DNA of 55,829 nucleotides. Source: a virus. Of the stretch, positions 38,769 to 54,647 are shown in pieces. The first letter of the stretch is position 1. Every line of letters begins with the position of its first letter. Under the pieces are notes generated by a model. That model worked only from the letters and a program-made list of their open reading frames with translations, had not been told where the DNA came from and did not search any database. The stretch lies in IMG/VR virus record IMGVR_UViG_3300017527_000200, positions 1-55,829 of that record; one strand, 5' to 3'. Both the position numbers and the translations under genes were made by a program.

Positions 38769-39561
38769 TTCTTGTCTCCAGGTAGCTCTTAACCGGCAGT
38801 TCCAGATATGCCGGGCCAAAGGTTTTGTTTTTGTCTCTCTGTCTGAGGGATTCCACCAGGTTGGTTAGTTCTTCTGGTTTGAGCTCTGCCTGTTCCCAGT
38901 TGGCTACTAAACCGATCACCTTGGGTGTATGAACCTGTTCTTGTCTAAAGCCCAGCGCAGCAAGTGTGGCTATTAGCTGGCGCCTTGGCTCTGGTTTTTC
39001 TTCTGGCTGAGTAGATTCCCCTGCTGTGCTGTGCTGTTCTGGTCTGGTCTGGTTAGGGTCTGGTAGGGTCTGGTAGGGTCTGTTATCAGGAACGTCTGCG
39101 GGAACCCTTTCGATACCGTTCCGGAACCCTTTCGATAGGGTTTCGATACGGTTTAAAAAGTCATCACTCCAATATCTCCCATTCTTCTGTAATGCTTTGA
39201 TTAGATTAGGATATATGGATATTGAGCTTGGGATTGCATCAAACTCCTTAGCCCTGGCCTTTGCGGAATTAGGGTTTGATATTGGATTCCATCGCAAAAA
39301 CTCAGGAATAAGGATATATTCAGACGGTTTATCGTACTCCAGGAAACCCTTTCGATACAGTTGGTCGAACCCTTTCGATACCGTTTCGATAGGGATACCA
39401 AGGTCTATTGAAATGTATCCAACAGGCATCCTGAAACACCCTATTCCGCTGGTATGCTGGCAGGTCAATAGGTATGCTCCTATTACCTTGACCTCAATGG
39501 GAAGAGGCTGGATGTCTGGATGAGTCCAAAACGCTGACTGTATTTGTCCGTATTCTCTCAT
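38581..39561 (-). CDS. replication initiator O-like protein
   Basis: A 326-residue protein with an N-terminal winged-helix region (MREYGQIQSAFWTHPDIQPL, then AYLLTCQHTSGIG, VSKGFDQLYRKGFLEY) typical of phage O/DnaT-like initiators. Gln/Asn-rich linkers and a C-terminal GRN-rich segment follow. The gene itself carries an iteron cluster (39103-39391), as lambda O does. It probably binds the origin and recruits the P-like loader encoded in the overlapping gene. Confidence 0.75.
   Translation of the reverse strand: MREYGQIQSAFWTHPDIQPLPIEVKVIGAYLLTCQHTSGIGCFRMPVGYISIDLGIPIETVSKGFDQLYRKGFLEYDKPSEYILIPEFLRWNPISNPNSAKARAKEFDAIPSSISIYPNLIKALQKNGRYWSDDFLNRIETLSKGFRNGIERVPADVPDNRPYQTLPDPNQTRPEQHSTAGESTQPEEKPEPRRQLIATLAALGFRQEQVHTPKVIGLVANWEQAELKPEELTNLVESLRQRDKNKTFGPAYLELPVKSYLETRNGKGNSHSNQGNGSGKNKHQVARALIQADIERCFGPGAIIGGIHGQDETDIPGEVDSKTIEH
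39103..39391. repeat. iteron cluster, predicted replication origin
   Basis: Four exact copies of AACCCTTTCGATA (39103-39115, 39125-39137, 39345-39357, 39368-39380) plus two partial TTTCGATA copies (39141-39148, 39384-39391). They lie inside the O-like gene in two pairs separated by an AT-rich stretch (39180-39330). This arrangement resembles iterons in phage initiator genes. Confidence 0.72.
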
Positions 39562-46899: not shown

Positions 46900-48072
46900 A
46901 TGGAAAACACACAGAAAAAAGAAGTAGAAGCGGTAGAGCCAGAAGCAACCTATGAGCCAGGTACCGCCCTGATTACTGCCGAGGAGATTAACCCGGCAGT
47001 GGTATTCACCGCAGAGGGGATCCGGCCAATTATCGACCGTATCAAAGCGGTGGCGCAGGCCCATGTGCCTGATATATCTACTGCCCAAGGCAGGCAGAAA
47101 ACCATCAAGCTGGCTTACCAAGTAACAAGGTCAAAGACCCTGCTTGATGATATGCGCAAGAAACATACTGCGGCGATCAGGGAACAGATTACAGCGGCGA
47201 ATGCTGCAGGAAAGATGGCCGTGGAGGAGCTGAGCGAGACCAGTACCAAGGTTCGCCTGCCCGTTACTGAATGGGAAGCGGAACAGGTCAAGATCAAGGA
47301 AGAGGCGGAGCGTATCGAGCAGGAGCGGATATTAGATATTACCATCCGGATTAACACCAACTTCGCCCTGGACACCATACAAGGCTTGGAGGACAAGCCT
47401 TCCGTTATGATCCAAGCCAGGATCCAGCGAGTTACCGCTATCGAAATTCTGGCAAAGGATTACCAGGAGTATGTAACCGAGGCGGTCAACGCCAAGAACC
47501 TGCTGCTCGCTCACCTAAACACCCTCTACAGCACCAAAGCACAGCAGGAAGAGGCCGACCGGATCCAAAAGGAACAAAACCAGATCCGTGAGGCAGAAGA
47601 CGCACTGCGAAAGAAAGAAGATGAGCGCCTGGAAGCCGAGCGCAAAAAGCTGGCTGAAGATAAGGCAGCCTTTGAAAAGCAGCAGGCCGACGCCAAGAAG
47701 GAGCGGGAAGACAGAGAGAAAGCGGAGGAGGAGAAGCGCGAAGCAGACGCCAAGGCCCAGCGCGAAGCCGAAGAGGAAGAGGCTGCCCAAGTAGAGCCGA
47801 AACCGGTAGAGCCAGGCCAAGCTGGTGGTCTGGAACAGCCAAAACAAGACAGCACCAGTGAGGTCGTTGACTCGCTTATATCTAAGGTAGAGCCCGATTT
47901 CACTGCTGACATTGATAAAAATGCTCTTATGGCCTTCGCTATGCTGGTCCGTGGTTTTATCCAAGATAACGAACCAAGCGACATCCAGGGAGAGAACGAG
48001 CGGCTTGCACTCGACACAACAACCGGATCACTCCACCAGGCTTGCGACCGGCTTATTGCTTATTGCGAGTGA
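46900..48072 (+). CDS. coiled-coil recombination-associated protein
   Basis: A 390-residue protein. The N-terminal region (~30-190) includes the segment ITAEEINPAVVFTAEGIRPI and DUF1351-like helices. A long charged coiled coil (~215-305, AERKKLAEDKAAFEKQQADA and onward) and a C-terminal domain that ends LHQACDRLIAYCE follow. Proteins of this type are common beside RecT/SSB in phages. It ends only 8 bp before the interspaced-repeat array, so array RNA is likely made from the same transcript. Confidence 0.72.
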   Translation: MENTQKKEVEAVEPEATYEPGTALITAEEINPAVVFTAEGIRPIIDRIKAVAQAHVPDISTAQGRQKTIKLAYQVTRSKTLLDDMRKKHTAAIREQITAANAAGKMAVEELSETSTKVRLPVTEWEAEQVKIKEEAERIEQERILDITIRINTNFALDTIQGLEDKPSVMIQARIQRVTAIEILAKDYQEYVTEAVNAKNLLLAHLNTLYSTKAQQEEADRIQKEQNQIREAEDALRKKEDERLEAERKKLAEDKAAFEKQQADAKKEREDREKAEEEKREADAKAQREAEEEEAAQVEPKPVEPGQAGGLEQPKQDSTSEVVDSLISKVEPDFTADIDKNALMAFAMLVRGFIQDNEPSDIQGENERLALDTTTGSLHQACDRLIAYCE

Positions 48073-48079
48073 TTGGAAG

Positions 48080-48739
48080 AGTGGGTCATTTTTGCATAGA
48101 CAACCAGAAGTGCAGAGCGTGCCAAGTACCATTAGACAACCAAGTGGAGCAAGCGAGTCACCGTATAGTAGACAACCATAACTGTTAAGCGAACCAATAT
48201 TGTACGAGACAACCATACTCCAGGAGTGAGCCAAACCATGTTAGACACCCAGAGGTGTTAAGCGAGTCAGGCGATGAAAGACACCCGTAATGAGGAAGCG
48301 AGTCAGATGATGACAGACACCCGTGGCGAAAAAGCGAGCCACCGTATAGCAGGCAACCAATTGAAGTAAGCGAGTCATTTTGATACAGACAACCATTATA
48401 GTGAAGCGAGCCACGCGAGGAGAGACAACCACACTCATTAAGTGAGCCAATCACACCGAGACAACCAACGAAGCATCAGCGAGCCAAAGGGTGACAGACA
48501 ACCATGTGGCGAAAGCGAGTCAGGAATAGAAAGGCAACCATAAATACTAAGCGAGCCAACGGAATCCAGACAACCATGGCTACCGAGCGAGCCAATAGTA
48601 TCAAGACAACCAAATAGATAAAGCGAGCCATAAGAGGTAAGACCCCCGACATGATTACAGCGAGCCAATATCTTTTAGACAACCAAATAGAAAAAGCGAG
48701 CCAAGTTTGAGTAGACACCCATACACCAGGAGCGAACAT
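48080..48739 (+). ncRNA. TIGR-type tandem interspaced guide RNA array (18 units)
   Basis: Nineteen copies of a B-type 9-mer (consensus AGCGAGCCA; first 48080-48088, last 48731-48739) alternate with eighteen A-type 9-mers (consensus AGACAACCA; first 48098-48106, last 48713-48721). Thirty-three of the 36 spacers are exactly 9 nt and three are 10 nt, so the period is 36 nt with two variable segments per unit. Eleven of the 18 A copies are identical, as are 8 of 19 B copies. Spacers share no sequence except a few near-duplicates. The layout (two different short repeats, two ~9-nt spacers per 36-nt unit, array next to a Nop/IS110-like protein) is that of TIGR arrays, whose RNAs are cut into 36-nt guides. 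It is not CRISPR: repeats and spacers are far too short. The final repeat contains the ATG of the downstream gene. Confidence 0.9.
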
Positions 48740-49604
48740 GAACAGGAACAACCTTAGAACAGCAGTACGCGGAGCATACGATTTGCAAAAACTCAGGATC
48801 CAGATGGGCAACCGCATTGTTGGGAACTTCAAAGCCAAACTTGGCCAAGCCCCAAGCGATAAGGAAGAGAGCCTCGATGCGGAAGGAAAGGCCCTCCTCA
48901 AAAACCTGCGCATCCATTATACAAAAATAACGGATGGCATTAAGACGTTTCCACGCCAGAAGTCATTTAAAGGGGATGAGGTAATTTCCAATTATACAGA
49001 GCTGTGCTTGCTGGCTCAGTATGCTGATCTTGAAAGCAGCGAGACAACTCACTTTAAGCGACTAACGCAGATTCTGCGAGAGTTTCCTATCTATACAGAG
49101 TTTCTGGTAGACGTTAAAGGTATTGGCCCCGCCATGGCAGGAGTGATTATTTCAGAGATTGATATAACCCGAGCCGAATACCCATCTAGTCTATGGAAGT
49201 ACGCCGGGCTTGATGTTGCTGCTAATGGCGCAGGCCGAAGCCGCAAAAAAGAACATCTTGTCGAAATCGAATATACCGACAAAGACGGAAAACCAGCCAA
49301 GCGAGCTGGAATCACGTTCAACCCCTGGCTAAAAACCAAACTAATTGGCGTGTTGGCCTCATCCTTTTTGCGGGCTGGGGAAAATCCTTATCGCATAATC
49401 TATGATGATTACAAACATCGTCTTGAAAACCACCCCGCACATTTAGAAAAAACAAAAGGCCATCGCCACAACATGGCTATGCGTTACATGATTAAGCGTT
49501 TTCTAGTGGATCTATACAACGCGTGGCGCCCACTTGAAGGATTAGAAGTGGCGCCAGAATACTCGAAAGCCAAACTTGGCAAAACGCACAAGAAGGCTGC
49601 ATAA
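48738..49604 (+). CDS. Tas protein (nuclease-less, Nop/IS110 C-terminal-like; TasA type)
   Basis: A 288-residue protein that starts in the last array repeat (SD AGGAG at 48728-48732). An N-terminal helical region (~1-115) precedes a helix-hairpin-helix-type region (VDVKGIGPAMAGVIISEID, ~123-142) and the YPSSLWKYAGLDV motif (~145-158), with a basic GRSRKKE loop, a NPWLKTKLIG helix and the end helices MAMRYMIKRFLVDLYNAWRP. This is the IS116/IS110/IS902 C-terminal (transposase_20) signature, which corresponds to the Nop-like RNA-binding region of Tas proteins. The RuvC-like DEDD domain of IS110 and an HNH domain are both absent, so it should bind tigRNA and DNA but not cut it. An insertion-sequence remnant is a less likely reading because the array is attached and no IS boundaries are seen. 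Confidence 0.85.
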   Translation: MNRNNLRTAVRGAYDLQKLRIQMGNRIVGNFKAKLGQAPSDKEESLDAEGKALLKNLRIHYTKITDGIKTFPRQKSFKGDEVISNYTELCLLAQYADLESSETTHFKRLTQILREFPIYTEFLVDVKGIGPAMAGVIISEIDITRAEYPSSLWKYAGLDVAANGAGRSRKKEHLVEIEYTDKDGKPAKRAGITFNPWLKTKLIGVLASSFLRAGENPYRIIYDDYKHRLENHPAHLEKTKGHRHNMAMRYMIKRFLVDLYNAWRPLEGLEVAPEYSKAKLGKTHKKAA

Positions 49605-49632
49605 ATAACTTTCTAAAAAAGGAGAATATAAC

Positions 49633-49824
49633 TTGCTCATACTTACGAGAAGAATTGGTGAATCCCTGAAGATCGGGGATGAAGTAACCGTAACCATTCT
49701 GGGAGTGAAAGGGAATCAAGTACGCATTGGAACAGATGCGCCTCGTGGTATCTCGGTTCACCGGGAAGAGATTTACGACCGCATCAAGCAGGAAGGCAGG
49801 CAGGGAGGGAAAAATGGAAATTAA
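49633..49824 (+). CDS. csrA: phage CsrA-type RNA-binding regulator
   Basis: A 63-residue protein beginning with TTG after AAAAAAGGAG. It reads [20 protein letters not shown] and continues to [18 protein letters not shown]. It keeps the RNA-contact residues L4, R6 and R7 in strand 1 and the R44 of VHREE. CsrA binds A(N)GGA motifs around ribosome sites and changes translation or stability of the message. A phage copy could redirect host carbon metabolism or regulate phage genes. The TTG start may tune it down. Confidence 0.92.
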
Positions 49825-50017
49825 AACCAATGTGGCACTAATCAGCGCAGTGAAACAAAACGCTGTAATTCCAGGCAGCAGGATCGAGGATAGCAGGGGG
49901 GTGCATTTTATTAAGATGACCGACCAAGGAAAGGCACTCAGGACAGGTAATGGCGCAGTGGTGCTGACATCCTACCTAGCCTTCCCGGTAACGGTCACAG
50001 AACCAAGGGATGTGTGA
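49814..50017 (+). CDS. small hypothetical protein
   Basis: A 67-residue beta-rich protein from the ATG at 49814 ([20 protein letters not shown]) after GGGAGGGAAAA. It overlaps the end of csrA by 11 nt and its stop overlaps the next start (TGATG). The [18 protein letters not shown] segment suggests a small folded domain. No family recognised. Confidence 0.65.
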
Positions 50018-53948: not shown

Positions 53949-54647
53949 ATGGAAAATAAATTATCTGTTCCCGCGCGCTTTATGAGTTATGTCCTGATTG
54001 ATGAAAAGACTGGTGCCTGGTTGTGGCAAGGCGGAAAGACTAGCGCGGGATATGGTGGTTTCTGGATAGATGGCAAAACAGTCGGGGCTCATAGGTATGC
54101 CTATGAAATGAAACACGGCCCAATCCCTGATGGCCTGCATGTCTGCCATAAATATGAGGTACTAGGCCGGCATAACGTCAATCCCGATCACTTGTTTTTA
54201 GGAACCATCTCAGATAACAACAAGGATGCAGCTAAGAAAGGACGTACCGCCTATGGTGAAGCTAATGGGCAGCGCAAATTAACCGAAGCTCAAGCGACAG
54301 AAATACGCACATCCACTGAAACTGGAGCTATATTAGCCTCCCGTTATAATATTTCTGAAACAGTAATCAGCAAAATCAAACGTGGCACCGCATGGGTACG
54401 CACACAAGGATCTCCATTAGGAGCGGTTACTATCCACTCTCTTCGGAACAAGTCTGGTTATCGCGGGGTCTGCTGGAAAAGAGGGGCATGGGAAGCGTCT
54501 ATCACTGTCACCAGGGAAAAGAGGAAAAGCGCCATCTATCTTGGGAGGCATCAAGATCCAGCAGATGCCGCAAAAGCCTATGACAAAGCGGCGATTAAGT
54601 ACAAAGGCAACAATGCCAAATTAAATTTCCCAGAACAACTGCTATGA
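53949..54647 (+). CDS. HNH endonuclease with AP2-like C-domain
   Basis: A 232-residue protein: N-terminal HNH domain (IDGKTVGAHRYAYEMKHGPI, then GLHVCHKYEVLGRHNVNPDHL, with H-N-H residues), a HTH-like stretch (RKLTEAQATEIRTSTETG), and a C-terminal AP2-type DNA-binding domain (NKSGYRGVCWKRGAWEASIT, then AAIKYKG). It is a typical phage homing endonuclease and probably moved here with the surrounding cassettes. Not part of the tas gene. Confidence 0.85.
   Translation: MENKLSVPARFMSYVLIDEKTGAWLWQGGKTSAGYGGFWIDGKTVGAHRYAYEMKHGPIPDGLHVCHKYEVLGRHNVNPDHLFLGTISDNNKDAAKKGRTAYGEANGQRKLTEAQATEIRTSTETGAILASRYNISETVISKIKRGTAWVRTQGSPLGAVTIHSLRNKSGYRGVCWKRGAWEASITVTREKRKSAIYLGRHQDPADAAKAYDKAAIKYKGNNAKLNFPEQLL

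What the first reader, a model, noticed from the sequence alone, without database searches (positions are those of the whole stretch)
48738..49604. Nuclease-less Tas protein (TasA type) directly attached to the array
The 288-aa protein has the VDVKGIGPAMAGVI and YPSSLWKYAGLDV signatures of the IS110 C-terminal domain, the relative of Nop-like Tas domains, but no RuvC DEDD or HNH domain. A phage version that can only bind could act as a programmable repressor or block of rival mobile DNA or host genes.
Basis: partly seen in the sequence, partly recalled or inferred. Interest (0 to 1): 0.87.

Follow-up and report, generated by a model that had tools for sequence, protein, structure and literature searches.

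The report
Phage RNA-guided DNA binder without nuclease
This phage carries a small RNA-guided protein with no DNA-cutting part next to a string of 18 guide units, a system type already described in 2025 (TIGR-TasA); relatives' guides hint that such systems aim at foreign genes rather than the phage's own genome.

Summary
The 288-aa ORF at 48738-49604 is a solo Nop-domain protein: its model aligns with TasH and TasR only past their nuclease domains, and NCBIfam's TIGR-Tas model hits above cutoff. It abuts a TIGR dual-repeat array of 37 repeats (48080-48739), which runs into the tasA ribosome-binding site and start codon. Of 92 relative loci, 85 have such an array within about 115 nt of tas, on the same strand. 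It is therefore a new member of a known kind, TIGR-TasA.

What it targets is unproven. Comparing relatives' arrays gave three new points. The heritable unit is AGCGAGCCA-x-AGACAACCA-y (22 of 25 isolated shared spacer pairs). Homologous units vary with codon periodicity, the halves about 2 bp apart (p about 0.001). One unit, in three variants, spells a tRNA D-arm when its spacers pair with opposite strands (36 of 42 database occurrences lie in tRNA genes). No guide tested matched its carrier's genome. A binding-only block on foreign DNA is the best-supported reading, but function is inference. The window's own 18 units have no identified target.

The parts
48080..48739 (+). TIGR dual-repeat array: 19 edge-like repeats (AGCGAGCCA type; first and last degenerate) alternating with 18 loop-like repeats (AGACAACCA type), 9-nt spacers (three of 10 nt), i.e. 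18 units edge-x-loop-y
   Evidence: unit phase
48738..49604 (+). tasA: 288-aa solo Nop-domain Tas protein, no nuclease domain
48728..48732 (+). AGGAG ribosome-binding-site-like sequence of tasA, formed by the end of the last spacer and the start of the last edge-like repeat
   Evidence: sequence; role inferred

Best explanation
It is a TIGR-TasA system of a tailed phage. The array and tasA lie on one strand beside the phage's recombination genes and are probably one transcript. The array is cut into about 18 tigRNAs of about 36 nt, each half-edge, x, loop (AGACAACCA), y, half-edge. A TasA dimer holds one tigRNA; x pairs with one strand and y with the other strand of an 18-20 bp target, opening and bending it without cutting. 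The most likely role is a programmable roadblock to transcription or replication of foreign DNA (rival mobile elements or host genes), with the array re-shuffled unit by unit as targets change. Because the last unit overlaps the tasA ribosome-binding site, TasA-dependent processing may also limit tasA expression. Shown here: protein fold (predicted), array, linkage, unit phase, turnover, absence of self targets as far as tested. Known from TasR/TasH/FpTasA (PMC12045711): processing, tandem pairing, dimer, bend. Inferred: everything about function in this phage.
For: Fold: AlphaFold2 model (mean pLDDT 74) best matches TasH (Z 17.3, chain residues 66-297) and TasR (Z 15.7, residues 111-316), with IS621 at Z 11.5 and Nop5/Prp31 near 7. 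NCBIfam NF052498 TIGR_Tas 129.9 bits against cutoff 100. Array within about 115 nt of tas in 85 of 92 relative loci. Unit phase: 22 of 25 isolated shared spacer pairs are (after-AGCGAGCCA, after-AGACAACCA); 100 near-identical unit pairs in this phase against 60 in the other. Codon-like covariation across halves, 58 against 34 and 32, p 0.001 with column-preserving control; within halves p 0.016. tRNA D-arm unit in three variants. No self match: window units in their own record; a Moraniibacteriota genome, 13 units in 1.16 Mb. Window neighbours: RecT, exonuclease VIII-like, SSB.
Against: No target was found for any of the window's 18 units. Over 2.66 Mb of viral and other DNA (the 41 viral and 5 genome stretches fetched by the tRNA pattern left out) the expected orientation gave no excess over three control orientations. 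Only 9 of 58 unit families with two or more variable columns were fully synonymous in some frame, so coding targets are not general or the families are noisy. In 84 tRNA genes not fetched by the pattern the expected orientation had no excess (8 units within 3 mismatches against 4-9 in controls). No promoter-like site and no plus-strand terminator-like site were found at 47900-49900. Repeats begin with AG, not the UG (box D) of TasR. Expression, processing and binding were not measured.
Confidence: 0.7

Rival explanations
1. A regulator of host genes: TasA RNPs bind chosen host loci, tRNA genes included, to redirect expression during infection rather than to fight other mobile elements.
For: A tRNA D-arm unit exists in eight related contigs and tRNA genes are a host as well as a phage feature; codon-like covariation would also fit host genes.
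Against: Large, fast turnover of units between near-identical Tas proteins (for example 7 shared adjacent spacer pairs of 42 and 60 between L005 and L007) is unlike regulation of stable host genes. No match in the 1.16 Mb of the one own genome tested, though that locus is a distant relative.
Confidence: 0.25
2. An aid to integration: TasA bends tRNA-gene attachment sites for the phage integrase, as Faure et al. suggested for TasA in general (aid to integrases).
For: One tRNA-gene unit in relatives; the DNA bend by TasR and the suggestion itself are from PMC12045711, Discussion.
Against: The matched stretch is the D-arm, not the anticodon, T-arm or 3' end that integrases usually use (recalled). 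It is one unit family among 995 units scored; the window array has none. Integrase genes were not searched for.
Confidence: 0.07
3. TasA recruits a separate phage nuclease to the bound site, so the system does cut in trans.
For: A RecE/exonuclease VIII-like gene and RecT lie close by in the window; nuclease fusions (TasH, TasR) exist in the family (PMC12045711).
Against: No conserved partner: of 110 relative loci searched only 2 had a match to the window exonuclease and 12 to SSB. Published TasA also lacks clear protein partners (PMC12045711).
Confidence: 0.06
4. A degenerate IS110 transposase beside an unrelated repeat.
For: Pfam Transposase_20 and PHROG 'transposase' labels.
Against: IS110 model 29.3 bits against cutoff 140 while the TIGR-Tas model passes; no N-terminal DEDD domain; array linkage in 85 of 92 loci; Z 17 to TasH against 11.5 to IS621.
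Confidence: 0.02

Closest known systems
TIGR-TasA (solo Nop Tas, e.g. FpTasA of Flavonifractor plautii; PMC12045711)
   Same: Solo Nop domain, adjacent dual-repeat array with 9-nt spacers and 36-nt period, phage context
   Different: Repeats AGCGAGCCA/AGACAACCA; array upstream of and overlapping the tasA start; no terminator seen. The FpTasA sequence itself was not compared here.
TIGR-TasH (Salicola phage CGphi29; PDB 21kl, 9vzx, 9w02-9w04)
   Same: Closest solved fold; phage-encoded Nop core; 29% identity in the phage record over 61% of the query
   Different: TasH has an N-terminal HNH nuclease; this protein starts where that domain ends
TIGR-TasR (PDB 9mty)
   Same: Nop core, tandem-spacer guide
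   Different: TasR has an N-terminal RuvC nuclease; its repeats start with UG
IS110 / IS621 bridge-RNA recombinase
   Same: C-terminal RNA-binding domain, family-level sequence similarity
   Different: IS110 has a DEDD RuvC-like domain and no guide array
Box C/D snoRNP Nop5 and Prp31
   Same: Nop fold at lower similarity (Z about 7)
   Different: They bind RNA with partner proteins; here x and y are expected on opposite DNA strands

Membership tests
TIGR-Tas | Nop-domain protein of the Tas family | tested here: met
   NF052498 129.9 bits, cutoff 100; phmmer to 9mty and TasH; fold match
TIGR-Tas | Adjacent array of two alternating 8-12-nt repeats with about 9-nt spacers | tested here: met
   repeated in 85 of 92 relative loci
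TIGR-Tas | Both repeats carry box C (CCA) and box D (UG in TasR) motifs | tested here: inconclusive
   Both repeats end in CCA or a close variant, but begin with AG, not UG; Faure et al. say the motifs diverge and covary
TIGR-Tas | Array processed to about 36-nt tigRNA bound by Tas | not testable with these tools
   needs expression and small-RNA sequencing
TIGR-Tas | Two spacers pair with opposite strands of one dsDNA target | tested here: inconclusive
   No target known for the window's units; in relatives one unit family fits a tRNA gene in this arrangement
TIGR-TasA subtype | No HNH or RuvC nuclease domain | tested here: met
   no nuclease family in Pfam; model aligns to TasH 66-297 and TasR 111-316 only
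IS110 transposase | N-terminal DEDD RuvC-like domain; score above IS110 family cutoff | tested here: not met
   29.3 bits against cutoff 140; aligned to IS621 residues 126-315
Box C/D Nop5 | N-terminal fibrillarin-binding domain and K-turn guide with L7Ae | tested here: not met
   Model aligns to Nop5 from residue 135 on only (3pla), so the N-terminal domain is missing; fibrillarin and L7Ae were not searched for

The most novel reading that the evidence does not exclude
TIGR-TasA arrays of phages are libraries of guides against foreign genes, chiefly protein-coding ones and in one clade a tRNA gene. They evolve by shuffling and point-mutating whole dual-spacer units so as to follow synonymous variation in the targets, with a roughly 2-bp gap between the half-sites, and they never aim at the carrier. 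This would be the first evidence of natural TasA targets that I know of, and would make TasA a cleavage-free weapon or shield in conflicts between mobile elements.
Probability: 0.3. Interest if true: 0.8.

Novelty: new member of a known kind. Interest (0 to 1): 0.5.

Why it matters
Faure et al. call the role of nuclease-less TasA unclear and say genuine spacer targets are hard to identify. About 1,000 distinct units from relatives of this locus, with a settled unit phase, give a data set in which targets can be sought. Codon-periodic covariation and a tRNA-gene unit turn 'what does TasA bind' into a direct binding test. The overlap of the array with the tasA ribosome-binding site suggests a testable feedback.

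Tried and rejected
Targets inside the phages themselves: joined targets of all units in expected and three control orientations, both unit phases, gaps 0-2, over 1.2, 1.8 and 2.66 Mb: no excess apart from the tRNA unit, whose matches lie in stretches fetched by that pattern (counted, left out).

rRNA as a target: in the E. coli rrnB operon one unit of L069 matched 23S with one mismatch in the expected orientation, but another unit did so in a control orientation; the exact sequence was absent from 61 and 101 genomes of two phyla. Not supported.

tRNA genes as a general target class: 84 tRNA genes not fetched by pattern, no excess. Only the single D-arm unit family stands; I noticed it by eye in a list of shared spacers before testing it.

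Rival DNA polymerase: unit (TTTAAGGCA or TTGAAGGCA, ACTTGGTCT) of L005-L008, L048 and L057. Its joined target had 9 stretches in viral contigs, 8 at gap 0, and 7 of the 9 lie at the same codons of one family-B DNA polymerase family. Weak: the stretch encodes a commonplace EGKTK run, an unrelated gene in L394 also encodes LEGKTK there, the local repeat also fits a control orientation, and only the L057 variant is exact. The tRNA target is absent from the 7 records at up to 2 mismatches.

Exact scan for two of the four variants of the most codon-like unit family (?AH?AYC): no viral match. One window unit, gaps 0-2: no viral match. Close relatives of the window phage: terminase at most 65% identical in the best segment, RecT none, no megablast hit in named phages. 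Plasmids: no TasA. PADLOC: no match. Fold search: families not listed are not excluded.

Full report
What is there. The ORF at 48738-49604 (+) codes for 288 residues. Directly upstream, on the same strand, lies an array of alternating 9-nt repeats, AGCGAGCCA-type and AGACAACCA-type, every 18 nt. A strict motif finds 35 repeats and 34 spacers, 31 of 9 nt and 3 of 10 nt; a chained scorer extends it to 37 elements, 48080-48739. No other part of the 55,829-base record shows comparable period-36 self-similarity. The record is a virus record with terminase, portal and major head genes; SSB, RecT and an exonuclease VIII-like gene lie upstream and a csrA gene downstream of tasA.

What the protein is. 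Pfam sees only the IS110 C-terminal domain. NCBIfam, June 2026, has a model named TIGR-Tas endonuclease that hits at 129.9 bits (cutoff 100), while the IS110 model stays at 29.3 (cutoff 140); the word endonuclease in that name does not fit this member. An AlphaFold2 model from 15 aligned sequences (mean pLDDT 74.4, pTM 0.63) matches TasH at Z 17.3 (214 residues, rmsd 4.1-5.0) from TasH residue 66 on, TasR at Z 15.7 from residue 111 on, IS621 at Z 11.5 from residue 126 on, and Nop5 or Prp31 at about 7. So the protein is the Nop core alone. This is TasA as defined by Faure et al. (PMC12045711; I read text parts 1-3, the sections on stem-loop arrays, Discussion, locus methods, parB, and figure legends). 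Their FpTasA bound 36-nt RNAs.

Linkage. From two viral scans and one genome scan I collected 110 related loci (one search kept the best 80 of 161). Leaving out 13 second copies of the same contig and the five truncated genes (L020, L022-L025), 92 loci were examined: arrays upstream in 22, downstream in 70, both in 7, none in 7. Of those seven, L014, L032 and L111 begin within a few bases of the contig edge. Distances from array to tas ranged from -11 to 114 nt. All chains were on the tas strand except one on the minus strand of L088.

Which spacers form one guide. Arrays of close relatives differ strongly and show which spacers travel together. Among maximal shared runs inside non-identical arrays, 28 of 37 begin with a spacer that follows AGCGAGCCA and end with one that follows AGACAACCA; for runs of exactly two spacers this holds for 22 of 25 (22 duplicate loci and the window's own copy L001 left out). 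So the edge is AGCGAGCCA and the loop the A-rich AGACAACCA, as in TasR, where the loop is A-rich (PMC12045711). The window thus holds 18 units, the first and last edge degenerate. Near-duplicate spacers within one array are frequent (150 of 50,445 pairs at most one mismatch; 11 after shuffling letters, duplicate loci included), and units are rearranged between relatives (L104/L105, L047/L065). Units are gained, lost, moved and mutated as whole pairs.

What the guides may aim at. From the published cut positions I derive the target as x followed by the reverse complement of y (inference). No set of units showed an excess in this orientation in the viral DNA held, including whole or nearly whole records of carriers. 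The window's units have no match within 2 mismatches in the window. In a Moraniibacteriota MAG with a TasA locus, 13 units against 1.16 Mb gave none within 1 mismatch, and 3, 6, 2 and 0 at 2 mismatches for the four orientations. So guides do not aim at their carriers, as far as tested.

Two results point outward. First, homologous units (at most 4 of 18 bases different; 75 families) vary with codon-like phase. For variable columns in the two halves, the class that fits a 2-bp gap (mod 3) has 58 pairs against 34 and 32; with column totals kept the mean is 41.6, p 0.001, or about 0.003 allowing for three classes; within halves, distances that are multiples of three are 47 of 149, p 0.016 (first seen). 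The clearest family, four variants in L045, L058 and L062, is fully synonymous with a 2-bp gap, but only 9 of 58 families are fully synonymous in any frame. Second, a unit in eight related contigs, as (CTAACCAAA, ATAGCTCAG), (CTAACCAGA, ATAGCTCAG) and (CTAACCAGA, ATAACTCAG), joins at gap 0 to ATARCTCAG-TYTGGTTAG. Of 42 exact occurrences in viral contigs 36 lie in ARAGORN tRNA genes, 18 of them tRNA-Ile(GAT); the third variant's exact combination occurred once, outside a tRNA call. In Bacteroidia, with one mismatch allowed, 5 of 149 genomes matched the first variant, 4 of the 5 in tRNA-Ile. Since one spacer has the tRNA sense and the other the antisense, a piece of a tRNA gene cannot give the unit by simple copying; it is what the tandem rule predicts for a dsDNA target. 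It was seen by eye first, so its weight is less than a planned test. Two further leads, 23S rRNA and a phage DNA polymerase, did not hold up or stayed weak (see Tried and rejected).

How it works, and confidence. That this is a TIGR-TasA locus is close to certain. That its RNP binds dsDNA through tigRNA without cutting is likely by homology. That it serves as a block on foreign DNA is the best-supported function but inferred. The array's last edge overlaps the AGGAG and ATG of tasA; if edges are cut where Faure et al. saw, processing would remove the tasA start region, a possible feedback.

Novelty. The kind is known; the instance is new. In the held library only PMC12045711 and a review (PMC12385481, search listing only) treat the system at length; four searches listed no paper that, by title or abstract, names natural TasA targets. 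Most subscription papers and preprints are not held, so this is no proof of absence.

Noticed in passing
window 49633-49824: A csrA-like gene (Pfam CsrA E 4.5e-24) with a TTG start lies directly downstream of tasA. The comparison with relatives used coordinates in the wrong frame for csrA, so its conservation near tas is untested.
   Followed up: partly
L022:5378-5581, L023:2976-3179, L024:5998-6201, L025:5998-6187 (contig end): Four contigs carry a tasA start of 62-66 residues and no array found, with an SSB-like gene just upstream; in L022-L024 the frame ends there, so these look like decayed systems.
   Followed up: partly
L016, L019, L021 (tas genes): Three Tas proteins carry an insertion of several dozen residues between the GLDV and GRSR motifs; L019 has DHIEPISGN in it. 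Nature unknown.
   Followed up: no
L005-L008: Identical or near-identical Tas proteins whose arrays share both ends but differ through the middle (L005 against L007): turnover is internal, not polar as in CRISPR.
   Followed up: partly
window 53949-54647: HNH_3 plus AP2 protein, like a phage homing endonuclease.
   Followed up: no
window 39034-39391: Short tandem repeats TCTGGTAGGG and TTTCGATACGG-like, not explained.
   Followed up: no
all parsed arrays: Spacer position 9 is A in about half and C in under 10% of spacers after both repeats, so repeats may really be 10 nt with a soft first base.
   Followed up: no
L031:7823-9327: A CPR (Moraniibacteriota) TasA locus has mostly 37-nt units with a different loop repeat, AACAGAAACA.
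   Followed up: partly
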